Shown in pieces: positions 1-21,385 of a stretch of 64,000 nucleotides of DNA. Origin of the DNA: Collimonas fungivorans Ter331 (GTDB lineage Bacteria > Pseudomonadota > Gammaproteobacteria > Burkholderiales > Burkholderiaceae_D); the NCBI RefSeq assembly GCF_000221045.1, contig NC_015856.1, positions 5,069,424 through 5,133,423 on the forward strand, written 5' to 3'. The translations under genes and the position numbers were made by a program. Positions within the stretch are counted from its first letter, which is position 1. The number at the start of each line of letters is the position of its first letter. The notes below the pieces were generated by a model. The model was not told where the DNA came from. It saw only the letters and a program-made list of their open reading frames with translations, and searched no databases.

Positions 1-168
1 GCGCTGGAATCCGGCTGCATCCTGGAGCTCCCAGTGCCGGTGGACGACGCCCAGATCCGGCTGGTTTCGCATGGCCAGGTTCTGGCGTTTGGCGAACTGG
101 TAGCAGTCGGCGGCCAGCTAGGCCTGCAAATCCACCGCATGGCAGAACGCAATGACCGGCTCTCCTGA
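1..168 (+). CDS. sctQ: SctQ (HrcQ) C-ring protein, C-terminal end only
   Basis: Partial gene: the last 55 codons run in from the left edge and stop at 166-168. The visible part is a SpoA/FliN-type domain end, with the pattern ILELPVPV, a short loop, then GELVAVGGQLGLQI. Proteins of this family build the cytoplasmic sorting platform (C-ring) of the T3SS, where chaperone-effector complexes dock before export. It overlaps the start of sctR by 17 bases, so the two are translationally linked. The identity rests on the domain and on the following sctR-sctS genes. Confidence 0.85.
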   Translation, partial: ALESGCILELPVPVDDAQIRLVSHGQVLAFGELVAVGGQLGLQIHRMAERNDRLS

Positions 169-799
169 TATTGCGTCGCTGCTGATCGCAGCGCTTGCCC
201 TCGCCATCTTGCCGTTCGCCGCGATGGTGGTGACGTCTTATACGAAGATCGTCGTGGTGCTCGGTCTACTCCGCAACGCTCTCGGCTTGCAGCAAGTGCC
301 GCCGACTTCGGTGCTGAACGGCGTTGCCATCATCATTTCATGCTTCGTGATGGCGCCGGTCGGCATGGAAGCTGTCAAGCACGCGCAGCTATCGAGCGAA
401 CAAACCGCCGGATCGCAGATCATGCCGTTGTTCGATGCCGCGCGCGAGCCGTTTCGCACCTTTTTGCGCAAGCATACATCGGAACGCGAGAAGGCGTTTT
501 TCATGCGCTCGGCCCGCCAGATATGGCCGCCGGAGCGAGCCGCGGAGCTGAAACCGGACGACTTGATCGTACTGGCGCCGGCGTTCGTATTGAGCGAACT
601 GACCGCGGCTTTCAAGATCGGCTTCCTGCTATACCTGTGTTTCATCGTGATCGATCTGGTGATCGCCAATGTACTGATGGCATTGGGATTATCCCAGGTC
701 AATCCGAGCAACGTCGCGATTCCATTCAAGCTGCTGCTGTTCATATCGCTGGACGGCTGGTCCACCTTGGTCCACGGACTCATATCCACTTATCGGTGA
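152..799 (+). CDS. sctR: T3SS export apparatus protein SctR (HrcR/YscR)
   Basis: 215-residue FliP/YscR family inner-membrane protein. With SctS and SctT this family forms the helical core of the export gate. Visible features are an N-terminal hydrophobic helix followed by the family pattern TSYTKIVVVLGLLRNALG (about residues 28-45), a second hydrophobic stretch at about 55-75, a polar periplasmic domain at 75-150, and two C-terminal hydrophobic helices. Length is normal for SctR. The start lies inside sctQ and the stop is 4 bases before sctS, which indicates one operon. Confidence 0.97.
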   Translation: MTGSPDIASLLIAALALAILPFAAMVVTSYTKIVVVLGLLRNALGLQQVPPTSVLNGVAIIISCFVMAPVGMEAVKHAQLSSEQTAGSQIMPLFDAAREPFRTFLRKHTSEREKAFFMRSARQIWPPERAAELKPDDLIVLAPAFVLSELTAAFKIGFLLYLCFIVIDLVIANVLMALGLSQVNPSNVAIPFKLLLFISLDGWSTLVHGLISTYR

Positions 800-803
800 A
801 GCC

Positions 804-1064
804 ATGGAATACGACGCAATCACCCACATGACGACGCAGGCGTTGACGCTGGCCCTGCTGGTATCCCTGCCGGTTGTCGGCATTGCCGCAATCACCGGCC
901 TGGTAGTGGCTTTTCTGCAGGCGATTACCTCGCTGCAGGATTCCAGCATTTCGCAGGGCATTAAAATGATAGTCGTCACGGTGGTGGTGGTTATCAGCGC
1001 GCCATGGGCCGCCGCCGCGATCCAGAACTATGCGCGTTCGGTGTTCCAGGTGATCTTTCCATGA
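804..1064 (+). CDS. sctS: T3SS export apparatus protein SctS (HrcS/YscS)
   Basis: 86-residue FliQ/YscS family protein with two hydrophobic helices (about residues 14-37 and 52-74) joined by the conserved loop containing QAITSLQDSSISQG. In the export gate SctS subunits pack around SctR. The length is typical. The stop codon overlaps the next ATG as ATGA, so the following hpaA-like gene is translationally coupled. Confidence 0.97.
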   Translation: MEYDAITHMTTQALTLALLVSLPVVGIAAITGLVVAFLQAITSLQDSSISQGIKMIVVTVVVVISAPWAAAAIQNYARSVFQVIFP

Positions 1065-2083: not shown

Positions 2084-3097
2084 ATGAATAAACAGATTCG
2101 CGTATTGACTGGTCATCACTCCGGAGCAGTGATCAATCTGGCCATTGGCGATACCACGGTCGGCTGCGACGCCGGGTCTGAAATTCAAATCTCGGACTGG
2201 GACGCGCCGGCCATGTTGCTTACGCTGGATGAACAAGGCAAGGTGGCGATAGGCATATCGAATGGCAGCGAGCAGCAGGTTCGGCTTGAAGATTTCGAAC
2301 CTCGCAGCTTCAGCGATATTGTTCTATGTGCAGGACCTGCAGACGAAACATGGCCGTCCGACATCAGCTTGCTGCGCCTGGTGTGCACTCGGCAAACCGA
2401 TCAGCAAGCCGTTGCGGAAAGTTCTCCGGACCAGGCGCCGGCAGCTCGGCATCCAGTCAAGGCCGTCCCCGTCTGGGCGCGCCACGCCACCATCAGCTGG
2501 CTGGTTTTGGCCTCGTCGCTGCTGGCGGCCGTGACAGCCACCGCAATGATCGTGCCCGGCGCGAATCCGCTGCGGAGCGGCGTTCTGCCACCGCCGCAAG
2601 CATCGCTGGAAAGACTGAAACTGGCTGTCGCGCACCTGAACCAGGACGGCCTGACCATTAGCGAGCAAGACGGCGTGCTTAACGTCAGCGGCATCGTCCA
2701 GCAGGAAGCTGCCGCGGCCATGGTCTATCAGGCGGCGCATGCCGTCGCAGCAGGGCATTTGAAGTGGAACGTCAGGGCGGCGGACGAAGTGGTGCGCGAT
2801 CTCAAGGAATCACTGCGCACCCCTGACGTAAATGTGCAATACAAGGGCAGCGGCGTGTTTGCAGTGACAGGAACCGTATTGCACCCTGAGGCCGTCCACA
2901 AAGTTGTCGAACAATTTCGCGCCGATCTGGGGCCGCTGGTCAAACAGGTCGATGTCAATGTCATGCGTGCCGACGAAATCGCGACTGCCAAGGATATCGG
3001 TTCCGCGCTGGCAGTCGACGGCCTGCAATATTTCGCGTCGAGCGACGGCACGAAAAGCTTCGTTTCGCCGCAACGCGCTTCGCTCCGCTTCCAATGA
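2084..3097 (+). CDS. sctD: T3SS inner-membrane ring protein SctD (HrcD/HrpD5)
   Basis: 337 residues. The N-terminal ~100 residues resemble the FHA-like cytoplasmic domain of SctD (VLTGHHSGA, then DTTVGCDAGSEI). One transmembrane helix follows at about 137-158, then a periplasmic part with repeated ring-building modules. The protein forms the outer of the two inner-membrane rings and joins the sorting platform to the basal body. It follows the hpaA-like gene after 144 bases that hold a hrpII-type box, and the next small gene starts 10 bases after its stop. Confidence 0.88.
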   Translation: MNKQIRVLTGHHSGAVINLAIGDTTVGCDAGSEIQISDWDAPAMLLTLDEQGKVAIGISNGSEQQVRLEDFEPRSFSDIVLCAGPADETWPSDISLLRLVCTRQTDQQAVAESSPDQAPAARHPVKAVPVWARHATISWLVLASSLLAAVTATAMIVPGANPLRSGVLPPPQASLERLKLAVAHLNQDGLTISEQDGVLNVSGIVQQEAAAAMVYQAAHAVAAGHLKWNVRAADEVVRDLKESLRTPDVNVQYKGSGVFAVTGTVLHPEAVHKVVEQFRADLGPLVKQVDVNVMRADEIATAKDIGSALAVDGLQYFASSDGTKSFVSPQRASLRFQ

Positions 3098-3107
3098 GGT
3101 AATTGCA

Positions 3108-3353
3108 ATGTACGAATATATGACAGAACCGCTGATCAAAACTTTAAACGCGCTACCTAAGTTAGCCGGCGATCCAGCCCATTCCTCCGAATTGAATGCG
3201 GTCGCTCAGGCGCTGGAACAGATGGCGCTCAGCGCCGCCGAGGCCAACCGGGCCAGCGCAGATCCGAGCGAGCGCCAGACCGGCGGCGTAATCGTGGATG
3301 GATTGAGAGCGGCAGCCGAATTATGCCGCAATGCAGTAGAACAGCTTGCGTAA
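3108..3353 (+). CDS. Small T3SS protein in the hrpD6 position
   Basis: 81 residues, predicted to be mostly alpha-helical, with no signal peptide or membrane segment. I do not recognise the sequence itself. Xanthomonas carries hrpD6 (about 80 residues) in this position, directly after the sctD homologue, so a HrpD6-like or needle-chaperone-like role is the best guess from synteny and length. It starts 10 bases after sctD and is probably co-transcribed. The ATG at 3108 has the spaced ribosome-binding sequence GAGGTAATTGCA before it; another in-frame ATG lies at 3120. Confidence 0.7.
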   Translation: MYEYMTEPLIKTLNALPKLAGDPAHSSELNAVAQALEQMALSAAEANRASADPSERQTGGVIVDGLRAAAELCRNAVEQLA

Positions 3354-3370: not shown

Positions 3371-3486
3371 TGCCATGCGGCTGCATTGCATGGCATCGAC
3401 CCAGTTTTGTGTAGCGCCCATACGGGAATTGCACATTTTAACCGGGCTCCTTACGGAGCCCATCTAGCCCGCTTCGAGATCGAAGC
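3371..3486 (+). promoter_or_regulatory. Leader with three inverted repeats before the mini-gene array
   Basis: The gap between the 81-residue gene and the first array gene holds three clean inverted repeats: TGCCATGC (3371-3378) with GCATGGCA (3388-3395); GGGCTCC (3444-3450) with GGAGCCC (3455-3461, 4-base loop); and GCTTCGA (3471-3477) with TCGAAGC (3480-3486), just before the ribosome-binding site. The later array spacers lack them. One may end the upstream transcript; the others may be operator sites or mRNA structures controlling the array. Function is not known. Confidence 0.45.
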
Positions 3487-3511
3487 ATGTTTTTCATCAA
3501 GGAGAATCAAA

Positions 3512-3661
3512 ATGGCAGGAGCAATCGCAGGTCTGGACACAGGTGCACAAATCGCTGAAATCGAAGCAGCAGCGGCAGCAGAAAACGCCATCAACCTGGC
3601 CAATACCTTGGCCAAGGTCCATACCATGGGCCTGAAGGCTGCAAAAGACATCGTCGGCTAA
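3512..3661 (+). CDS. T3SS-linked mini-protein, array copy 1 (49 aa)
   Basis: 49 residues beginning MAGAIAGLDTGAQ, then an alanine-rich helix (EIEAAAAAENAINLAN) and a C-terminal amphipathic helix ending KAAKDIVG. There is no signal peptide, and the N-terminus is small, uncharged and Gly/Ala/Thr-rich, like many T3-secreted proteins. Its place matches hrpE (Hrp pilin) in Xanthomonas, so a pilus/needle subunit or other small secreted structural protein is the leading guess, although 49 residues is far below normal needle or pilin length. Ribosome site AAGGAG, 7-base spacing. I do not recognise the family. Confidence 0.9.
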   Translation: MAGAIAGLDTGAQIAEIEAAAAAENAINLANTLAKVHTMGLKAAKDIVG

Positions 3662-3678
3662 TCAACGTAGCAAGCGGC

Positions 3679-3711
3679 CGACGCCTTTAAGGCGTCGACC
3701 AAGTTCTTTTT
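3679..3711 (+). terminator. Array hairpin 1 with T-rich tail
   Basis: CGACGCCTT (3679-3687) and AAGGCGTCG (3689-3697) form a perfect 9-bp stem with a single unpaired base between; in RNA the innermost pairs must open to form the loop. A T-rich stretch (TTCTTTTT) follows to 3711. It could be a weak intrinsic terminator or a 3' stabilising hairpin that gives each mini-gene its own processed mRNA. Confidence 0.6.
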
Positions 3712-3742
3712 AATCACACCACTTTCATCAAGGAGAATCAAA

Positions 3743-3892
3743 ATGGCAGGAGCAATCGCAGGTCTGGATACAGGTGCACAAATCGCTGAAATCGAAGCAG
3801 CAGCGGCAGCAGAAAACGCCATCAACCTGGCCAACACCTTGGCCAAGGTCCATACCATGGGCCTGAAGGCTGCAAAAGACATCGTCGGCTAA
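3743..3892 (+). CDS. T3SS-linked mini-protein, array copy 2 (49 aa)
   Basis: The peptide is identical to copy 1. Two synonymous base changes from copy 1 are visible (the Asp codon at residue 9, GAC to GAT; the Asn-Thr stretch, AAT to AAC). The same AAGGAG ribosome site lies at the same 7-base distance. The spacer in front is nearly the same as those of copies 3 and 4, so each copy carries its own full translation signal and 3' hairpin. Confidence 0.9.
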   Translation: MAGAIAGLDTGAQIAEIEAAAAAENAINLANTLAKVHTMGLKAAKDIVG

Positions 3893-3909
3893 TCAGCGTA
3901 GCAAGCGAC

Positions 3910-3943
3910 CGATGCCTTTAAGGCGTCGACCAAGTTCTTTTTA
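3910..3943 (+). terminator. Array hairpin 2 with T-rich tail
   Basis: CGATGCCTT (3910-3918) pairs with AAGGCGTCG (3920-3928). The one change from the other units (C to T at 3913) turns a C-G pair into a permitted wobble pair, so the stem is kept. A T-rich stretch follows. Confidence 0.55.
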
Positions 3944-3974
3944 ATCTACACCACTTTCATCAAGGAGAATCAAA

Positions 3975-4124
3975 ATGGCAGGAGCAATCGCAGGTCTGGA
4001 CACAGGTGCACAAATCGCTGAAATCGAAGCAGCAGCGGCAGCAGAAAACGCCATCAACCTGGCCAACACCTTGGCCAAGGTCCATACCATGGGCCTGAAA
4101 GCTGCAAAAGATATCGTCGGCTAA
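3975..4124 (+). CDS. T3SS-linked mini-protein, array copy 3 (49 aa)
   Basis: The peptide is identical to copies 1 and 2. Synonymous differences lie in the Lys codon after MGL (AAA instead of AAG) and the Asp codon before IVG (GAT instead of GAC). Ribosome site and spacing are the same. The total lack of amino-acid change among copies 1-4, alongside several silent changes, points to selection on the peptide or recent gene conversion. Confidence 0.9.
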   Translation: MAGAIAGLDTGAQIAEIEAAAAAENAINLANTLAKVHTMGLKAAKDIVG

Positions 4125-4141
4125 TCAGCGTAGCAAGCGGC

Positions 4142-4174
4142 CGACGCCTTTAAGGCGTCGACCAAGTTCTTTTT
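4142..4174 (+). terminator. Array hairpin 3 with T-rich tail
   Basis: CGACGCCTT (4142-4150) and AAGGCGTCG (4152-4160), the same perfect 9-bp stem as hairpin 1, followed by the same T-rich stretch. Confidence 0.6.
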
Positions 4175-4205
4175 AATCACACCACTTTCATCAAGGAGAA
4201 TCAAA

Positions 4206-4355
4206 ATGGCAGGAGCAATCGCAGGTCTGGACACAGGTGCACAAATCGCTGAAATCGAAGCAGCAGCGGCAGCAGAAAACGCCATCAACCTGGCCAATAC
4301 CTTGGCCAAGGTCCATACCATGGGCCTGAAGGCTGCAAAAGACATCGTCGGCTAA
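4206..4355 (+). CDS. T3SS-linked mini-protein, array copy 4 (49 aa)
   Basis: The coding sequence is identical base for base to copy 1 although copies 2 and 3 lie between them. This pattern is expected from gene conversion or unequal crossing-over inside the array. The front spacer (with AAGGAG and 7-base spacing) matches the other units; the spacer behind it is the first to diverge. Confidence 0.9.
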   Translation: MAGAIAGLDTGAQIAEIEAAAAAENAINLANTLAKVHTMGLKAAKDIVG

Positions 4356-4376
4356 TCAGCGTAGCAAACGGTCGGC

Positions 4377-4410
4377 CGGCACTCGTGGGAGTGTCGACCA
4401 GCCTCTTTTT
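4377..4410 (+). terminator. Array hairpin 4, new stem sequence in the same place
   Basis: CGGCACTC (4377-4384) pairs with GAGTGTCG (4389-4396) around a 4-base loop, with one G-T wobble. CTCTTTTT follows. The stem sequence differs from hairpins 1-3 but sits in the same place in the unit, so the structure has been kept while both arms changed. Confidence 0.55.
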
Positions 4411-4443
4411 CGATCTGCACCGCCTCTCTCAAGGAGCATCAAA

Positions 4444-4596
4444 GTGAAAAAATCAGTCCTTACAGGCATACATGCAAGTGCGCAAATCGCTGAAATTGAA
4501 GCGGCAGCCTGCGCAGAAAACGCCATCAACCTGGCTAACACTCTAGCTAAAGTCCACACGATGGGTCTGAAGGCCGCCAAAGATGTCGTCGGCTAA
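4444..4596 (+). CDS. T3SS-linked mini-protein, array copy 5, diverged (50 aa)
   Basis: 50 residues from a GTG start. The GTG lies 7 bases after AAGGAG, the same spacing as the ATG of copies 1-4, which decides the start. The N-terminus is rewritten and basic (KKSVLTGIHASAQ), but from AQIAEIEAAA onward it matches copies 1-4 closely, with one Ala to Cys change (about residue 23) and a final KDVVG. A single Cys in a family otherwise lacking it could be structural. Confidence 0.85.
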   Translation: MKKSVLTGIHASAQIAEIEAAACAENAINLANTLAKVHTMGLKAAKDVVG

Positions 4597-4607
4597 TTTT
4601 CAGGCAC

Positions 4608-4641
4608 GGCCGATCTTCTTTGACATGTCGGCCATTTTTTT
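4608..4641 (+). terminator. Array hairpin 5, intrinsic terminator-like
   Basis: GGCCGA (4608-4613) pairs with TCGGCC (4628-4633) around a 14-base loop and is followed by a run of seven T (4635-4641). This is the most terminator-like element of the array. The stem sequence again differs from those of the other units. Confidence 0.6.
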
Positions 4642-4672
4642 AAATGCAAAGCTCTAATCCGAGGGCGCCACA

Positions 4673-4819
4673 ATGTCTGCCATCACCGGTCTGAATACAG
4701 ATAAACAAATGGATATCATCGAAGCTGCCGCTGCGGCGGAGAACGCCATTGATCTGGCCAATACTTTGGCCAAAGTCCATACGATGGGCTTTAAAGCCGC
4801 CAAAGATATCGTTGGCTGA
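4673..4819 (+). CDS. T3SS-linked mini-protein, array copy 6, diverged (48 aa)
   Basis: 48 residues starting MSAITGLNTDKQMDIIEAAA. The N-terminal third differs from copies 1-4 and carries extra charge, but the C-terminal 27 residues match with only N to D and L to F changes and the same KAAKDIVG end. This fixes the conserved core as the C-terminal helix. Ribosome site is GAGGGCG at a longer spacing than the AAGGAG of copies 1-5, so expression may be weaker. It lies 110 bases before the HpaB-like gene. Confidence 0.88.
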   Translation: MSAITGLNTDKQMDIIEAAAAAENAIDLANTLAKVHTMGFKAAKDIVG

Positions 4820-4929: not shown

Positions 4930-5385
4930 ATGAGCCTCAAACGCCGCGACGAATTGATTCGAGATCTGTGTGCGATTCGGCAAATTGCCGACGTCGATGG
5001 GGCGGTAAATTCAGGCTTGCTCGAAATTGACAGCTTCGAAGTGGCAATCGATTATTTCGACGACGACCCCAAAGCCATCTACGCCAATTTTCAATTGGGC
5101 ATCGTCACGGCCGGCCGTACGCTGCGTATCTTCAGGTTGCTGCTGGAAGCCAACCTTGCGGTCTATGCGCAAGACCAGGCGCAGCTTGGACTCGAGGTAG
5201 ATACCGGCGGCATCGTGCTGATCAGCCGCATTGCCTTGGACGATGAAATCGATGGGAAATGGCTGGTCGACCTCATCGATCACTATCTTGAGCATGGCCG
5301 TTACTGGCGCGACAACATGTTCCAGGCGCGGGACGACATGTTCGAAAATATCGCCTCTGGCGAATATGTCTGGATTCGTGCCTGA
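4930..5385 (+). CDS. CesT-family T3SS chaperone, HpaB-like
   Basis: 151-residue acidic protein with the alpha/beta pattern of Tir-chaperone (CesT) family class I chaperones, including the strand pair around LGLEVDTGGIVLISRIAL and an acidic C-terminal helix. In Xanthomonas HpaB (about 156 residues) follows hrpE and is a general T3 effector chaperone; size and position agree here. It could instead be a dedicated chaperone for the effector gene downstream (175 bases away). Start ATG at 4930; the ribosome site is weak. Confidence 0.7.
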   Translation: MSLKRRDELIRDLCAIRQIADVDGAVNSGLLEIDSFEVAIDYFDDDPKAIYANFQLGIVTAGRTLRIFRLLLEANLAVYAQDQAQLGLEVDTGGIVLISRIALDDEIDGKWLVDLIDHYLEHGRYWRDNMFQARDDMFENIASGEYVWIRA

Positions 5386-5468: not shown

Positions 5469-5531
5469 TTCGCTATTTTCCGACTAAATTCGCCGCCGGC
5501 TTCTCAATAGCCGGCTTCCGGCCGCGAGAAT
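5469..5531 (+). promoter_or_regulatory. PIP/hrpII box ahead of effector gene
   Basis: TTCGC at 5469-5473 and TTCGC at 5489-5493 have 15 bases between them, the exact PIP-box consensus (TTCGC-N15-TTCGC) and also TTCG-N16-TTCG. A possible -10 (GAGAAT, 5526-5531) is weaker than at the other two boxes and lies 33 bases after the box. The effector ATG is at 5560. Confidence 0.7.
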
Positions 5532-5559: not shown

Positions 5560-6918
5560 ATGGAAGTCACCAGAAGCGCACCCGCAACATCCCAGCATAT
5601 CGATACCGAAACAGCTGCAGAACAGCAAACCGCCAGCGCCGCACGCCGCAGCGGCAGCAGATCGCCAACCCGGGAATCGCTGCCCGGACTGGACTCGCTT
5701 TCCGGCAGCGGAAAGAAGGTAGCGAGCAGCAACCTTTTCGGCAGTAAAGGAAGCAGCTCACTGCCGGCTCCGGCAACTGAACCAGCGCCCCGGAAGCACG
5801 GCAGCTATAAAGGCGGGGTCAGCACTGCCGCGCTTGCAACGCATCTGCAGAACGCATTTACCAACATATCGCAGCTCGATGCCAAGATGGATGAAATGGT
5901 AGCCAAGGGTAAATTTACGGTCACAGAAGCAGATACAGTCATTAAGAGCCAGATGCAGACATGGTTGAAAAAGCCGGGGACCGAAGCTGCGCTCCATACG
6001 CAGGCAACCCAGAGTTTCACTCATAAAATCGGCAAAGAAGATTTATTTCCCGGATGCATTCTGGTGCGCAAGGAAAGCATTCCGGAATCGAAGGCGCACG
6101 CGTTTTCCCTGGGACTGCAAATGGTGCCCGATCTGAATGGCATCGAGAACAATCAAGGCGACGATAACTGTTTCCACATCATGATGTGGGCGCACGATCA
6201 GCATAATCCGGTCAAGACGGAGCTGGATGGAAAAGGCGAGGCAGAACAACTGGAAGCGCGCGGCGGACTCGGTACATCGAACACCATGCGTGTGCAGGCG
6301 TCCTCGATACAGGAAGGCCAATACTGGGTCTACAAACCCACCGACAGGAATGTGGGCGACTGGGCGGCCCAGGCGGGTCAAATGTGGCAGGACGTCCCTT
6401 ATAGCAAAACCATCCTGGGCACTTCGATGAAACCGGGCGACAAATTTACAAAATTTACCGATGCGGCCCAGAAGGATATCCTGCGGGTGGCGTCGGATCC
6501 CTTCACCCATGCGCCGCCGCAGGCGCAGCCCTCGGATGGCGTCCATTTCCTGTCCATGACACCGAAAGAACGTACCCCGGGAGAAATTTGCTCTAGCGTT
6601 GCCGTGCGCTTGTATCAGGCGGCGCATGCCCAGATTGCGCTGGCCAATCAGGTGGAAAAAAACCAGGAATTGCCGACCGACGACGAAGCAGAGGCAATGC
6701 TGGAAAAAATCGTTTCCGAATTCACCGGATTGATGGCCAATAACGCGGAAGGCGTTTCCCCCAAGAGCGTCGAGCATTTCTGCAAAGTCGGCAAGACGGC
6801 GGAAGGCGAACCACAATTTAATTTCCTTGGCGTATTGACGGTAGACGCCAAGGACGTCTTGTACCCGGAGGCCAGGTACGACTCTGAGAACAACAGGATT
6901 CCCGCAGCGCCGCGCTAA
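5560..6918 (+). CDS. Likely T3SS effector with permuted papain-like motif set
   Basis: 452 residues. Residues 1-80 are Ser/Ala/Thr/Gln-rich and disordered-looking, like T3 secretion signals. The rest shows, in order, GCILVRK (165-171), CFHIMMWAHD (204-213) and EICSSVAVRLYQAA (343-355). This order (GD/GxIL, then HV/HI, then a late CS) is that of permuted NlpC/P60 or YiiX/YaeF-type enzymes, with H206 and C344 as possible catalytic residues. These enzymes cut or transfer acyl or peptide bonds. The gene has a PIP box, an HpaB-like chaperone gene before it, and a good ribosome site (GGAG). The fold is my inference from short motifs; I recognise no named effector. Confidence 0.6.
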   Translation: MEVTRSAPATSQHIDTETAAEQQTASAARRSGSRSPTRESLPGLDSLSGSGKKVASSNLFGSKGSSSLPAPATEPAPRKHGSYKGGVSTAALATHLQNAFTNISQLDAKMDEMVAKGKFTVTEADTVIKSQMQTWLKKPGTEAALHTQATQSFTHKIGKEDLFPGCILVRKESIPESKAHAFSLGLQMVPDLNGIENNQGDDNCFHIMMWAHDQHNPVKTELDGKGEAEQLEARGGLGTSNTMRVQASSIQEGQYWVYKPTDRNVGDWAAQAGQMWQDVPYSKTILGTSMKPGDKFTKFTDAAQKDILRVASDPFTHAPPQAQPSDGVHFLSMTPKERTPGEICSSVAVRLYQAAHAQIALANQVEKNQELPTDDEAEAMLEKIVSEFTGLMANNAEGVSPKSVEHFCKVGKTAEGEPQFNFLGVLTVDAKDVLYPEARYDSENNRIPAAPR

Positions 6919-13410: not shown

Positions 13411-15774
13411 TCACCCCTGGGGCTGCGTCCGGGTCGCAAGTTGCAGCATTTGTTGTTTTTGGTCTCGCGCCTGGTCCAATTCGGCGCCGAGGTCGTAAGC
13501 ATGAGCCTTGGTGTAGTCTTTCGCCGCATTCCAGACGTAATCGTTGATCGTGCTTTGCCCGAACTGCTGCAACAGGTTGCCGCTGGATTTATACGATTCC
13601 CCGGGCAGCGGACCCGGCGCGCCGCTGCGCAGAAATTGCGCCAGAAGCGGGCCGGTCCCGGCTTGCACAACACTCGAAGTCGTACTGGCAAGCATGACCC
13701 GGCATACATCTATGGTCTGGCCGACACGGCTGGCCCAGGTCTGTTTTGGCCCCAAAGTCTGTTTGACTAGCGCACCGGCTTCAACCAGGGTTCCGCCCAC
13801 GAAATGCGGCAAGCGTGCAATATCGCTCCAGCCTGCTGCAGGAATGTCGGGGTTCTTGACTTTGACGGAATAAAGATTAACGCGTTGCTTTCCACCTAAC
13901 AGGTTATCGACCTCGGTTTGTGCAAGGTGCGGAGTCGCCTTGGCCATGGCTATCAAAAATTTACTCAAGGCGCCGGCACTTGAGGAAGTTAGAAGAGTTC
14001 CGCCAAAAACCGGCAGTGGCTTTGTCAATGCGCTCGCGCTCGATACCACTCGGCGCAGCACATTCGCGGTACCCATCATTCCTGGCTGAAACCACGTTAC
14101 CAGCCCCTTCCCATCCAGAGCGCCTTGCTTCATCGACAATAAATTGCGGGTAGCCGTGGCTTCGTGCTTCAACGCCAGATGCGAGATGTTTTGCCCGGCC
14201 CCCAGGCTATTCTCCGCACCCTCGGAAGGAGCGCTTAAACCGCCGCCGGCCGCTGCCGGACGCCAGTATTCCTTTACGCCATCTTTCACACTTAGGCGCA
14301 CCGTTCCTGGAACAGGTATCAGCGCCTTCAGATCTACCGCCGCCAGCGCTGGGAAATTGGAGATTTTGGCGCGACGATCCATGGCCTGTATCAACCAGCT
14401 GTCCACGGCGTAAGCCGTCAGGCCGCTCGCCGCACCGCCCAGCAGGGCGGGCCCGATATCATTACCAAGCTCGCCGACCAGTTTTCCATTCTGAAGGCGC
14501 TGCCTGGTAGCCGTAACAATGGTGTTGCGCAGGGGAGAGCGTGACGTTCCCACGATGAATTGACGCGCGCCTTCATATAATGCCGCCAAGAGAGCGGAAT
14601 GCAATGGCGTCGACATGTCTTGCCGCATTGAATAGCCATGTCCGCCAAAGGCTTTCTGGCGCGCGGTCAGGACTTTCCCTGCCCATGTGACGTACTCTTT
14701 TTCAAGCCCCACTTGCTGGGTAAGGGATTCAGGCGAAAGGTGAGCCGGCCAGTGTAGTTTCTTAAGTTCATCGTTGACCTGCTGTTCCGGCAACAATTCC
14801 GGTATATCGATTACCACGTCCCCTCGGACCGGACGAGCCGGCCGGCCGGCATTGCCATGATCGGTGCGGCTATGTCCAGGCCGGCTCCGAAGATGAGATG
14901 CCGAAGCAGATCTGTCGTCAATCTGAATTTCCGATGAGGCAGGTAAACGACGCCTGCCGACGTTAATCGGAAGCGACTCGGTTCGTTCGCCGCTGCGAAT
15001 CGCCGCACTGTACTGAAATGGCGGAAATACGCCGGAACCGGACGCTGTCGTCGATTTACGGCCAGCCGCAGACGATTCCGGCATGTCTCCGCCGACCGGC
15101 GCCCGAGGCGGCAACCGTAGAGATGCAGATCCGCCCACTGAAGAATCTCTTGAGTGCGGACCACCAAAAATCATCCTCGAGTCAATGCTCCACTGCTTGG
15201 AGTCAGAACGCTCTCCAGCCCTTAGCAGGGATTCATGGTCGCCATGGCCTGGCGGCGCCGACTCATGCCGTTCCTCATGTCGGGGCGTGACATTTTCCAG
15301 AGTCGCCTGCACCGATTGTTCTTCGCGCCGAAACGATGCACCTGAATGCCGGGGCAATCCGATCGTTGACGCGGAACGTCTTACTTCGCCGCTATCGACT
15401 GAGGGTGTATTGGCGAATCGCGAGGAATGGAAACGCCTCTCTTGCGGCATTGCCGTACGGGGCAATGTGTTGGTTAAAGTTGTTGCCGGAGTTTGCGCCG
15501 CGTCGGCTACGCTGGCGCCGGCCTCAGGATCTACTGGCGAATGATGTACGGCCTGTAGCGACGCAAGATCCAATTCCCGCGAAGACGCATCCATCGACCG
15601 CATCCGCCTCCTGCCGGAAGACTCGGCCAGAGCCTGAAGCGGCCCGCCGCCCGGCTCCATCCGCTGCGAAGCGGTGCGGGGATTTGACACGGCAGGCCGG
15701 TCGTCCTCCGGCGTCGATATTGAAAGATCGTGCGGCAACCCCGTTGCGGGGCGTACTGGAACCGGAGAAGTCAC
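13411..15774 (-). CDS. Large T3SS effector candidate (787 aa)
   Basis: 787 residues. About residues 1-320 are Ser/Arg/Pro/Gly-rich and low-complexity, as in long T3 effectors. From about 330 (VVIDIPELLPEQQVNDELKK) the protein looks folded, with helices and mildly hydrophobic stretches around GPALLGGAASGLTAYAVDSWL and FGGTLLTSSSAGALSKFL. The C-terminus is charged. No catalytic motif is recognised. It starts 14 bases after a CesT-like chaperone gene and shares its box-bearing promoter, the usual chaperone-effector pairing. I cannot name a known effector family. Confidence 0.65.
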   Translation of the reverse strand: MTSPVPVRPATGLPHDLSISTPEDDRPAVSNPRTASQRMEPGGGPLQALAESSGRRRMRSMDASSRELDLASLQAVHHSPVDPEAGASVADAAQTPATTLTNTLPRTAMPQERRFHSSRFANTPSVDSGEVRRSASTIGLPRHSGASFRREEQSVQATLENVTPRHEERHESAPPGHGDHESLLRAGERSDSKQWSIDSRMIFGGPHSRDSSVGGSASLRLPPRAPVGGDMPESSAAGRKSTTASGSGVFPPFQYSAAIRSGERTESLPINVGRRRLPASSEIQIDDRSASASHLRSRPGHSRTDHGNAGRPARPVRGDVVIDIPELLPEQQVNDELKKLHWPAHLSPESLTQQVGLEKEYVTWAGKVLTARQKAFGGHGYSMRQDMSTPLHSALLAALYEGARQFIVGTSRSPLRNTIVTATRQRLQNGKLVGELGNDIGPALLGGAASGLTAYAVDSWLIQAMDRRAKISNFPALAAVDLKALIPVPGTVRLSVKDGVKEYWRPAAAGGGLSAPSEGAENSLGAGQNISHLALKHEATATRNLLSMKQGALDGKGLVTWFQPGMMGTANVLRRVVSSASALTKPLPVFGGTLLTSSSAGALSKFLIAMAKATPHLAQTEVDNLLGGKQRVNLYSVKVKNPDIPAAGWSDIARLPHFVGGTLVEAGALVKQTLGPKQTWASRVGQTIDVCRVMLASTTSSVVQAGTGPLLAQFLRSGAPGPLPGESYKSSGNLLQQFGQSTINDYVWNAAKDYTKAHAYDLGAELDQARDQKQQMLQLATRTQPQG

Positions 15775-15788
15775 GTTGGCCCTTTCGA

Positions 15789-16262
15789 CTATGGGTTTGG
15801 TTTGGCGCTGTCCAATAATTGCTGTACTGCCATTGCTCCAACCGCATTCATCAGATCGAGCGTTTTTACGATTTCATCGACTTCGTCGATCCAGGCAATC
15901 GAGCTGAGTTGCAACAGGCCCTCGGCGGAAACTCCCAGATACCAGCCGAACTCGGTGAGAAGCTTTCGTTGAATTTCCAGCAGTTGTCCAACTTCCGGCC
16001 CCATCAGCTCATTGGCGGAGAGCGGTAATGCGACTTCCGGAAAGACGGAGCATTGAGCGTCAAGCAAATGCAGCCGGCAGTCGAAACCCGATGGTCCGGA
16101 GAATGCCTTCGGCGCAATCAATTCTGTATATCTCGACACCGGGATGCCGAGCAGCACGGCAATCTGGATCAGGAAATTTTTTTGTTCTTCCGTGACCGTT
16201 TGCTTCTTGATTGAAGAATCCAGCGATCTACCGGCGGAAGAGGAATGCGATAATTTATTCAT
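15789..16262 (-). CDS. CesT-like T3SS chaperone
   Basis: 157 residues, acidic, with the class I chaperone layout: N-terminal helix, strands ending FDCRLHLLD, a central helix (VGQLLEIQRKLLTEFGWYLG), strand LLQLSSIAW and a C-terminal acidic helix (WIDEVDEIVKTLDLMNAV). Such proteins bind the N-terminus of one effector and hand it to the export gate. It lies directly before the 787-residue effector gene, which is its likely client. A hrpII-type box is 72 bases upstream of its start. Confidence 0.7.
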   Translation of the reverse strand: MNKLSHSSSAGRSLDSSIKKQTVTEEQKNFLIQIAVLLGIPVSRYTELIAPKAFSGPSGFDCRLHLLDAQCSVFPEVALPLSANELMGPEVGQLLEIQRKLLTEFGWYLGVSAEGLLQLSSIAWIDEVDEIVKTLDLMNAVGAMAVQQLLDSAKPNP

Positions 16263-19809: not shown

Positions 19810-20439
19810 TCAGAACGGCTGGCCGATCCGTCCCATCGTGCAGGAATACCGGCCCAGCTCGATGTCGTTGCGCAAGCCCATCTTTCTCATCGCCGAGGCC
19901 TTTTGCAAACCCACGGTCTTGACGCTCTTGTTGAGGCGGTCGGCGATTTCCCGCAGGCTGTTGCCGACCACGTACATCTTCAGCACCTCCGCTTCGCGCC
20001 TGGTCGGCAGCCTGCCGCTGGGGCCCTTTTTCAGCAACTGCAGCGCCGCCTTGCCGATATACGGCGCCGCATGCGAACCCTCCAGCATGGCCCGGCCGAG
20101 CTCGCTTATCTCGTCGCTCTTGTGCACCAACCCCTTCACGCCGCAATTGGTGATCTGGTACAGCACAGCGGGGATATCGATCATGGTCAGCACGATCAGC
20201 CCCAGCGTCGGGTAATTGCTCTTCAGCTGCCGGAACAATGCGCAGCCGCGGCCAATGCGGTTGATCGGCAGTGAAAATTCCGTGATCAGCAGGTCGCATG
20301 GCGTATCCAGCAGGCGTTCCGACAGTTCCGCTGTCGACGACGCCGTCGCCACCACGGTAAAACCCGGCATCTGCTCAATGTACTGGCGCGTCCCTGAAAT
20401 GATGGCCGGCTGGTCGTCGGCCAGAATAATCTTGGTCAT
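19810..20439 (-). CDS. RcsB-like response regulator, acceptor Asp replaced by Glu (copy 1)
   Basis: 209 residues from ATG (MTKIILADDQ). Receiver domain at 1-120: acidic pair DD, switch Thr in VLTM and Lys in VHKSDE are present, but the phospho-acceptor position reads LLITEFSLP, where the family has TDLSMP. The LuxR-type helix-turn-helix (REAEVLKMYVVGNSLREIADRLNKSVKTVGLQK) and the NDIELGRY end are RcsB-like. Glu at this site mimics phosphorylation in many regulators, so it may be constantly active. No kinase gene is adjacent. Divergent from a paralogue with the same change. Confidence 0.88.
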   Translation of the reverse strand: MTKIILADDQPAIISGTRQYIEQMPGFTVVATASSTAELSERLLDTPCDLLITEFSLPINRIGRGCALFRQLKSNYPTLGLIVLTMIDIPAVLYQITNCGVKGLVHKSDEISELGRAMLEGSHAAPYIGKAALQLLKKGPSGRLPTRREAEVLKMYVVGNSLREIADRLNKSVKTVGLQKASAMRKMGLRNDIELGRYSCTMGRIGQPF

Positions 20440-20686
20440 GAAATTGCCTCCCCGCAATTGATGAACGAACGATGTCTCCCTAGGTTTCTACTTATCGTTA
20501 TTGAATAGGAAGTATCGGGTTTGCACATTATTAAATATATAAGTAAATCTCTTAATTTCATAGTCCAATGAACAACTTAACAATAAAATAACTAGAATCA
20601 ACCACGCTGCAATACGGCGCCGGAGAATTGCGAAGTTTCCCGGGCCGTCTCCAACCCTGTCTGATATTTTCGATGGAGTAATCAAT
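20440..20686. promoter_or_regulatory. AT-rich divergent promoter region between two regulator genes
   Basis: 247 bases between the starts of the two divergent RcsB-like genes. The middle (about 20500-20600) is strongly AT-rich (runs such as TATTAAATATATAAG), unlike the GC-rich flanks. It must hold both promoters. I see no clear operator, but RcsB-like proteins often bind their own promoters. Confidence 0.5.
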
Positions 20687-21385
20687 GTGAGGATTGTTCT
20701 GGCGGACGACCACCCCGTGTTTACCGCAGGGGTGCGCAACTACCTCAACCACGTGCCGGATTGCCGCGTCGTGGCCTGCGTCACCAGCTCGGATGCGCTG
20801 GTCAGGTGCCTGGAGTCGACACCCTGCGACCTGGTCATCACCGAGTTCTCGATGCCGATGGTGCGCATCAGCGACGGCTTGCACCTGCTGTCTTACATCA
20901 GGCGCCATCATCCGCAAACCTGGCTGGTGGTGCTGACCATGAATGCACTGCCGGTGGTGCTGTACCAGATCGTCAACAGCGGCGTGAACGGCTTGCTGCA
21001 CAAAAGCGATGCAATCCCCGAACTCGGCAAGACCATCCGCCACCTAGGCAACGATTCGCCCTACATGGGACCGTCTTTCCAGGCCCTGCTGCAGAACGGC
21101 ATCAACGGCCAGGCCAAAAGCCGCATCCCGAGCCCGCGCGAAACCGAGGTGCTGCGCCTGTATGCGGCGGGCAACAGCCTGCGCGATATCGCCCAGCGCC
21201 TGAGCAAGAGCGTGAAAACGGTGAGCTTGCAAAAAGCTTCCGCGATGAAGAAACTGGGCCTTGGCAACGATATCGAACTGGGCCGCTACTGCGCCGCGGT
21301 AAGCGGCGATATTGTCCAGCCGCCGGGATGCGGCGACTGGTTTCTTTCAAATAACGAGAGCGATGACGACAGTGAAGAAACCTGA
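20687..21385 (+). CDS. RcsB-like response regulator, acceptor Asp replaced by Glu (copy 2)
   Basis: 232 residues from a GTG start; the ATG overlapping it runs straight into a stop, and GGAG lies 9 bases ahead. DD, VLTM and LLHKSD of the receiver are present, but the acceptor site is LVITEFSMP, again Glu for Asp. The LuxR/RcsB-type DNA-binding domain is intact (TEVLRLYAAGNSLRDIAQRLSKSVKTVSLQK, NDIELGRY). The C-terminus adds ~20 acidic residues not present in copy 1. Clearly a paralogue of the divergent gene. Confidence 0.88.
   Translation: MRIVLADDHPVFTAGVRNYLNHVPDCRVVACVTSSDALVRCLESTPCDLVITEFSMPMVRISDGLHLLSYIRRHHPQTWLVVLTMNALPVVLYQIVNSGVNGLLHKSDAIPELGKTIRHLGNDSPYMGPSFQALLQNGINGQAKSRIPSPRETEVLRLYAAGNSLRDIAQRLSKSVKTVSLQKASAMKKLGLGNDIELGRYCAAVSGDIVQPPGCGDWFLSNNESDDDSEET

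What the first reader, a model, noticed from the sequence alone, without database searches (positions are those of the whole stretch)
3512..4819. Six tandem genes for ~49-residue peptides in the Hrp-pilin position of a T3SS locus
Six ORFs of 48-50 codons sit between the hrpD6-position gene and an HpaB-like gene, where Xanthomonas carries the single hrpE pilin gene. All share a C-terminal helix core (AENAI...LANTLAKVHTMG...KAAKD.VG); N-termini vary. Each has its own ribosome site and hairpin. I know of no described T3SS with a multi-copy pilin or needle gene of this size. They could be a minimal, gene-amplified pilus/needle subunit, a filament coat, or small secreted peptides. Known: hrpE position. 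Seen: array and sequences. Inferred: function.
Basis: partly seen in the sequence, partly recalled or inferred. Interest (0 to 1): 0.87.

Follow-up and report, generated by a model that had tools for sequence, protein, structure and literature searches.

The report
Tandem mini-pilin genes of an injectisome
A soil bacterium's protein-injection machine carries, where relatives have one or two genes for the hollow pilus, six tandem copies of a gene for what looks like a pilus subunit cut down to about 49 residues, roughly the part of known subunits that is thought to polymerise.

Summary
In detail: six genes (48-50 codons) lie between hrpD6 and hpaB of what reads as a complete Hrp2-type T3SS. Four encode the same 49-aa protein (alpha); the fifth (beta, GTG start) and sixth (gamma) differ mainly at the N-terminus. 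They are real genes: alpha copies of the window differ only at synonymous sites, and between species pS is far above pN. In 392 genomes of the family the peptide occurs in 8, the same 8 that pass the HrpD5/SctD cut-off. The genome has one recognisable injectisome and no other recognisable pilin. Homology is shown: two Massilia carry one such gene in the slot, Robbsia and Paraburkholderia a 50-52-aa form, and profiles link these to 66-74-aa slot pilins, some of which match the Xanthomonas HrpE model. The array is best read as a shortened Hrp pilin, little more than the conserved C-terminal half, amplified in one genus (5-6 copies in the four uninterrupted arrays). Two-copy pilin slots occur elsewhere; 3 or more were seen only here. 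A 2017 paper had called short ORFs here 'pilin-like'; its text does not describe the array (figure not seen).

The parts
3512..3661 (+). alpha mini-pilin gene, copy 1 (49 aa)
3743..3892 (+). alpha mini-pilin gene, copy 2 (49 aa, identical protein)
3975..4124 (+). alpha mini-pilin gene, copy 3 (49 aa, identical protein)
4206..4355 (+). alpha mini-pilin gene, copy 4 (49 aa, identical protein)
4444..4596 (+). beta mini-pilin gene (50 aa, GTG start, calculated pI 7.9 against 4.9 for alpha)
4673..4819 (+). gamma mini-pilin gene (48 aa, weaker Shine-Dalgarno)
3676..3700 (+). stem-loop in spacer 1, followed by a U-rich stretch
3910..3931 (+). stem-loop in spacer 2
4139..4163 (+). stem-loop in spacer 3
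4370..4403 (+). stem-loop in spacer 4
4608..4633 (+). stem-loop in spacer 5
152..799 (+). hrcR (SctR), export apparatus
   Evidence: TIGR01102 273 bits, cut-off 208.6
804..1064 (+). hrcS (SctS), export apparatus
   Evidence: TIGR01403 84.7 bits, cut-off 76.5
2084..3097 (+). hrcD (HrpD5 family, SctD)
   Evidence: NF041525 336.5 bits, cut-off 300
3108..3353 (+). hrpD6-like gene
   Evidence: NF041505 E 6e-6, 26 bits (cut-off 100 not met); synteny
4930..5385 (+). hpaB-like chaperone gene (CesT family)
   Evidence: PF05932 23.7 bits (cut-off 22); 51-69% identity to the slot-flanking gene in seven loci of other genera

Best explanation
The six genes encode the filament (pilus) subunit of this Hrp2-type type III secretion system. 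It is a shortened relative of the HrpE-type Hrp pilins: compared with the 66-74-aa subunits in the same slot of related systems it lacks some 17-25 N-terminal residues, leaving a short N-terminus plus the conserved C-terminal half. I infer that alpha, with the strongest ribosome sites and four gene doses here, is the bulk subunit exported and polymerised into the conduit, and that beta (GTG start, basic) and gamma (weaker ribosome site) are minor subunits or spare copies. Shown: genes, selection, slot, co-occurrence, homology, copy numbers. Inferred: export, polymerisation, dosage purpose, subunit roles.
For: Slot and synteny hrcD-hrpD6-[array]-hpaB inside a T3SS. Co-occurrence: peptide in 8 of 392 family genomes, the same 8 handles that exceed the HrpD5 cut-off among 392; 6 of 15 in the genus, the same six as. 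Six further family genomes with HrpD5 matches below the cut-off (197-294 bits) have longer pilin-like genes in the slot instead. Only six profile hits in the own genome at E up to 1, all in the array; one injectisome SctR over the cut-off, the second SctR-like hit (193 bits) lies below it, as a flagellar FliP would. Homology: a seed profile of five short proteins finds slot ORFs of Cupriavidus (7e-10, 3e-9), Pandoraea (1e-8) and Caballeronia (1.4e-7) among 487 slot ORFs; hhalign of 13 short proteins (A3) against 12 Ralstonia/Cupriavidus-type ones (A4): probability 98.5, E 1.9e-15, 44 columns, 34% identity; A4 against A5 (9 proteins of the HrpE-matching kinds): 98.7, E 2.6e-16; 0 of 100 column shuffles reach any of the three scores; hydropathy profiles of A3-type rows correlate 0.75 with A4-type and 0.48 with A5-type rows (0 and 7 of 10,000 permutations as high). 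NCBIfam HrpE_Xanth hits 3 of 8 relatives scanned: Paraburkholderia L109 (5.9e-6), Duganella L085 (7e-6), L088 (0.0027). Selection: alpha copies of the window differ by 0-3 synonymous and 0 nonsynonymous changes over 44 codons; alpha copies of unlike species differ at pS 0.27-0.48, pN 0.01-0.06. One change explains the short form on an HpaB tree of 31 rows, support 88/80, 87% of bootstrap trees. Passages read: HrpE residues 53-93 are the conserved, most helical half, the N-terminal half is variable (PMC6026121); the C-terminus is the proposed polymerisation domain (PMC5217246).
Against: No expression, secretion, microscopy or structure data. None of 13 short proteins matches HrpE_Xanth or any other NCBIfam model at E up to 10, none of 12 A4 proteins matches HrpE_Xanth, and the direct comparison of short and HrpE-matching sets is moderate (probability 58.5, E 9.6e-5); the strong link runs through A4. 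hhalign E-values are for one pairwise comparison. The type III export signal of Xanthomonas HrpE lies at the N-terminus, the part shortened here (PMC6026121), so export is not assured. Dosage alone does not explain beta and gamma, and G011 lacks beta. Homogeneity of alpha is not general: in G004 alpha copies differ by up to 9.4%. The structure tool accepted no job.
Confidence: 0.82

Rival explanations
1. Only some copies are filament subunits; beta and/or gamma have taken on other tasks (base adaptor, cap, length or export regulator, translocon helper). The array is then a small gene family with divided roles, not just dosage. This is partly compatible with the best explanation.
For: Three classes in fixed order, recognisable across species; beta keeps a GTG start in 5 of 5 genomes that have it, and the window's beta is basic where its alpha and gamma are acidic. 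Ralstonia-group loci also carry two clearly divergent slot pilins.
Against: The C-terminal core is largely shared by the three classes (76-79% identity of beta and gamma to alpha); G011 has no beta and two gamma copies; no neighbour or motif points to a separate task.
Confidence: 0.35
2. The peptides are small secreted substrates (effectors, elicitors or antifungal peptides) encoded by chance in the pilin slot, and the real filament subunit is unrecognised.
For: T3SS loci of this kind often carry genes of secreted proteins near hpaB (recall); no Pfam, NCBIfam or PDB relative of the short form; tandem arrays suit secreted products.
Against: Profile homology to slot pilins, some of which match HrpE; a single homologue is the pilin candidate of the slot in two Massilia; no other pilin-like gene in the genome with profile A6.
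Confidence: 0.07
3. The extra copies are a neutral by-product of tandem duplication or a store for antigenic variation, with no gain from dosage.
For: Units are long direct repeats that recombine easily; duplications of this slot also arose in other genera; Hrp pilins are said to be under diversifying selection (PMC5483457 passage); alpha copies of G004 differ by up to 9.4%.
Against: Arrays of 5-6 are kept in all four genomes whose array is uninterrupted, and alpha proteins of the window are identical, which does not suit a variation store; decay would be expected if neutral.
Confidence: 0.15
4. Assembly artefact or misread non-coding repeat.
For: Near-identical repeats; two draft genomes break inside the array.
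Against: G000, G004 and G012 each show six copies on one contig, with sequences that differ between genomes, and codon-level purifying selection is clear.
Confidence: 0.01

Closest known systems
HrpE, Hrp pilus subunit of Xanthomonas (NCBIfam NF041507, HrpE_Xanth)
   Same: Slot between hrpD6 and hpaB (Xanthomonas gene order by recall and the gene list in PMC12376730); conserved C-terminal half, variable N-terminus; homology through intermediate slot pilins.
   Different: 93 aa in X. citri (PMC6026121) and single copy (recall), against 48-50 aa and 5-6 copies; the short proteins do not match the HrpE_Xanth model.
Slot pilins of the Ralstonia pickettii group, Cupriavidus, Pandoraea, Caballeronia (set A4; by recall of the HrpY type)
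   Same: Strongest profile match; 44 aligned columns with a shared C-terminal motif around K-A-A-K-D.
   Different: 66-89 aa; one or two copies per slot. That they are HrpY is recall, not tested: I looked for no Ralstonia solanacearum sequence.
Pilin-like short ORFs of Collimonas fungivorans Ter331 and Robbsia (Paraburkholderia) andropogonis ICMP2807 (PMC5483457, 2017)
   Same: Very probably the same locus, and its Robbsia counterpart (L104 is the same strain); called possibly pilin-like on position (passages read).
   Different: The main text says nothing that I found of copy number, homology, selection or distribution of these ORFs: 'tandem' does not occur and 'copies' concerns other proteins. 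Figure 2 was not seen.
Animal-type T3SS needle subunit (Pfam PF09392)
   Same: Analogous role expected.
   Different: No match of three array proteins or eight relatives; no match in 15 genus genomes, but the control genomes were silent too.
Multi-flagellin gene families
   Same: Several near-identical plus divergent genes for one filament (recalled analogy).
   Different: Unrelated protein; recalled, not tested.

Membership tests
Hrp2-type slot pilins (HrpE/HrpY-like, broad sense) | Gene lies between hrpD6 and hpaB of a Hrp2 T3SS | tested here: met
Hrp2-type slot pilins (HrpE/HrpY-like, broad sense) | Homologous, conserved C-terminal region | tested here: met
   moderate for the HrpE-matching subset, strong for the Ralstonia/Cupriavidus subset
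Hrp2-type slot pilins (HrpE/HrpY-like, broad sense) | Size in the reported range, 66-113 aa for plant pathogens (PMC3973906, passage); a description, not a definition of the family | tested here: not met
   46-52 aa in the short group where a ribosome site and the alignment support the start
Hrp2-type slot pilins (HrpE/HrpY-like, broad sense) | Type III-dependent export and assembly into a filament | not testable with these tools
   needs microscopy, secretion assay, mass spectrometry
NCBIfam NF041507 HrpE_Xanth (equivalog) | Score over the 90-bit cut-off | tested here: not met
   0 of 13 short proteins match at E up to 10; 3 of 8 relatives reach 18-26.6 bits
Pfam PF09392 T3SS needle | Model match | tested here: not met
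   no match for three array proteins or eight relatives at E up to 1
Phage coat proteins (PHROGs) | Model match | tested here: not met
   3 families matched by 1 of 13 members each, best E 0.087, none with a named function; no relative in viral contigs

The most novel reading that the evidence does not exclude
This injectisome builds its conduit from a T3SS filament subunit smaller than any in the ranges I saw reported, essentially the polymerisation half of a Hrp pilin with almost no surface domain, supplied by a tandem array, and mixes three subunit classes (bulk alpha, basic low-expression beta, gamma) that mark different parts of the filament.
Probability: 0.35. Interest if true: 0.82.

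Novelty: new variant of a known kind. Interest (0 to 1): 0.62.

Why it matters
The size ranges I saw reported start at 66 residues for pilins of plant pathogens and 63 for rhizobia (PMC3973906), and the profile search found no related sequence among solved structures. A natural subunit of 46-50 residues would come close to the minimal part that can polymerise and still pass cargo, which makes filament assembly testable with a tiny peptide. Identical alpha copies beside divergent beta and gamma copies offer a natural test of dosage against division of labour in an injectisome filament. It also shows that short genes in T3SS clusters can be traced by slot and by profile where single-sequence searches fail.

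Tried and rejected
Family searches with single peptides gave nothing useful, nor did a profile search of the PDB (three weak unrelated matches, best E 0.59). Phage-coat origin: no support. PF09392 needle in the genus: nothing, with silent controls, so not counted as strong evidence. Spacer hairpins as strict intrinsic terminators: not supported by the scan; consensus folding showed only one pair with a double change, so a conserved RNA structure is not claimed, although each spacer is predicted to form a stem-loop on its own. A hrpII/PIP box (TTCG-N16-TTCG; motif from recall and PMC5483457) directly before the array: no exact match, one with a single mismatch at 3473; the nearest exact one is at 3059-3082 before hrpD6. 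In the window as a whole such boxes are not above chance (6 against 4.1); in L008 they are (8 against 1.1). A link of the short form to fungus feeding was considered and dropped, because Robbsia andropogonis (a plant pathogen, by recall) has it too. Expression data for the array: none found; the transcriptome paper that I tried was not held, and the titles listed (12 of 25) named no such data. PMC5282467 and PMC3487950 (passages) did not help; HrpE in Herbaspirillum rubrisubalbicans is another protein (YscL/FliH family). Rows dropped: pairs with G006a_1 in the pS/pN table, cut by a contig end and out of register; slot pairs of L122 and L174, the first below its best shuffle and the second level with it. 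52 of 80 named slots gave no pilin at E below 1e-3 with the iterated profile and were not examined further. The automatic start choice gave 62, 88, 88 and 88 aa for L101, L102 and the two genes of L106; I labelled them short because internal starts align with Robbsia, so those lengths and labels are uncertain. The HpaB tree holds only loci with a recognised pilin (28 of 80) plus window, G004 and G012.
Full report
WHAT IS THERE. Between hrpD6 and an hpaB-like gene the window carries six ORFs of 48-50 codons in one orientation, start to start 223-241 nt apart. Genes 1-4 encode an identical 49-aa protein (alpha), gene 5 a 50-aa variant with a GTG start (beta), gene 6 a 48-aa variant (gamma). The window lies at 5,069,424-5,133,423 of a single-contig genome of 5,186,898 bases. 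I take the organism to be Collimonas fungivorans Ter331 from recall of its genome size and from the cluster described in PMC5483457; no tool names it, but named Collimonas records carry the same locus.

THE NEIGHBOURHOOD. Upstream lies what reads as a full T3SS gene set; the gene names outside the window are my reading of the ORFs and were not scored. Scored in the window: SctR, SctS and HrpD5-type SctD over their cut-offs, a weak HrpD6 match, and a CesT-family chaperone after the array. The genome has one SctR over the TIGR01102 cut-off, at this locus; the other SctR-like hit (193 bits, cut-off 208.6) is below it, as a flagellar FliP would be. PMC4690342 (passages) speaks of a second T3SS in this strain, which I did not find with this model. 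A profile of 29 slot pilins finds six places in the whole genome at E up to 1, all in the array.

ARE THEY GENES? Alpha copies of the window differ by 0-3 synonymous and no nonsynonymous changes over the last 44 codons; alpha copies of different species differ at pS 0.27-0.48 but pN 0.01-0.06, leaving out the near-identical pairs G000/G012 and G006/G008 and the cut copy G006a_1. Each copy has a Shine-Dalgarno sequence; in the window it is strongest for alpha, weaker for beta and gamma (in G011 alpha and gamma are alike).

DISTRIBUTION. In the genus 6 of 15 genomes carry the peptide, the same six that exceed the HrpD5 cut-off. In 392 genomes of the family 8 carry it, the same 8 handles that exceed the HrpD5 cut-off in a 392-genome draw. 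Six more family genomes with HrpD5 matches of 197-294 bits have longer pilin-like genes in the slot. Order and class samples with the wider profile gave only the own genome (1 of 349; 1 of 321), and viral contigs gave none. Copy numbers: six in G000, G004 and G012, each on one contig; five in G011; contigs of G006 and G008 end inside the array, with 4 and 5 pieces seen. Order is alpha (3-4 copies where the array is whole), beta, gamma, except G011, with three alpha and two gamma and no beta.

HOMOLOGY. An HpaB profile brought 80 named loci, the best of 163 confirmed matches. In their slots a seed profile of five short proteins found genes of Paraburkholderia, Robbsia, Cupriavidus, Pandoraea and Caballeronia at E 1.4e-7 or better among 487 ORFs, and Ralstonia-group genes at 2.6e-4 to 1.2e-3; iteration gave 42 genes in 28 of 80 loci among 1064 candidate peptides (iterated E-values are self-reinforcing). 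Separate profile-profile tests: A3 (13 short) against A4 (12 Ralstonia/Cupriavidus-type) 98.5%, E 1.9e-15; A4 against A5 (9 of the HrpE-matching kinds) 98.7%, E 2.6e-16; A3 against A5 58.5%, E 9.6e-5. 0 of 100 column shuffles reached any of these scores, and reversed profiles scored 11-14. Of 8 relatives scanned, 3 match NCBIfam HrpE_Xanth (5.9e-6, 7e-6, 0.0027; all below its cut-off); 0 of 12 A4 and 0 of 13 A3 proteins do. In the 29-row alignment the last 44 or so columns are free of internal gaps, three residues are invariant (N25, K42, K45 of the window protein), and the short proteins lack the N-terminal part.

HOW IT AROSE. On an HpaB tree of 31 rows (only loci with a recognised pilin) the short form sits on one side of one branch (support 88/80; one change in 87% of bootstrap trees), beside Paraburkholderia/Trinickia systems with 68-72-aa pilins. 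Three or more copies were seen only in Collimonas. Alpha copies within the window genome differ by 0-2.2%, and by 9-14% from those of species other than the close G012; in G004, however, alpha copies differ by up to 9.4%. This suits gene conversion or renewed amplification; I cannot tell which.

MECHANISM. PMC6026121 (passages) divides Xanthomonas HrpE into a variable half, residues 1-52, and a conserved, most helical half, 53-93, and places the export signal at the N-terminus; PMC5217246 (passages) reports the C-terminus as the likely polymerisation domain. The 49-aa protein is thus close to the conserved half with about ten residues in front. I infer that it is exported by the T3SS and polymerises into the conduit, that the alpha copies raise the supply of the bulk subunit, and that beta and gamma are minor subunits. 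Export, polymerisation and roles are not shown, and no structure could be predicted.

WHAT IS KNOWN. PMC5483457 (2017; [quoted passage not shown] fungivorans Ter331 and P. andropogonis ICMP2807; its main text has no 'tandem', and 'copies' there concerns other proteins; its figures were not seen. PMC4690342 (passages) notes hrp clusters in three Collimonas strains. PMC3973906 (passages) gives 66-113 aa for pilins of plant pathogens and 63-71 aa for rhizobia. Searches for multi-copy or tandem T3SS pilins or needles (in an open-licence library) listed no title or start of abstract that describes such an array; of the papers in these listings I read passages only of PMC5483457, PMC5217246, PMC6026121, PMC3973906 and PMC9409176 (not informative).

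VERDICT. Confirmed observation; the pilin reading moves from position alone to position plus homology plus co-occurrence. It is a new variant of a known kind: shortened and amplified. It is not a member of the HrpE_Xanth equivalog as curated, and the filament itself has yet to be seen.

Noticed in passing
window 3660-3745, 3891-3977, 4123-4208: The U-rich stretch after the first three spacer stem-loops is predicted to pair with the Shine-Dalgarno of the next copy, which could couple or damp its translation.
   Followed up: partly
window 3400-3514: The leader of copy 1 folds far better than shuffles (z -4.1, 0 of 200), with hairpins that include two GC-rich ones.
   Followed up: no
L115, L116, L117, L120, L124: Ralstonia pickettii-group T3SSs carry two divergent pilin-like genes in the slot; the second ends directly before hpaB.
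   Followed up: partly
   Followed up: partly
L008 (own genome, T3SS region): TTCG-N16-TTCG boxes are enriched in the T3SS region: 8 against 1.1 expected, 0 of 200 shuffles.
   Followed up: no
window 13411-16262 (-): A 787-aa and a 157-aa ORF side by side without Pfam match at E 0.01; size and order look like a secreted protein with its chaperone.
   Followed up: no
window 5560-6918 (+): 452-aa ORF without Pfam or NCBIfam match behind a TTCG-N16-TTCG box at 5469-5492.
   Followed up: no
window 19810-20457 (-) and 20687-21385 (+): Two divergently placed, similar LuxR-type response regulators.
   Followed up: no
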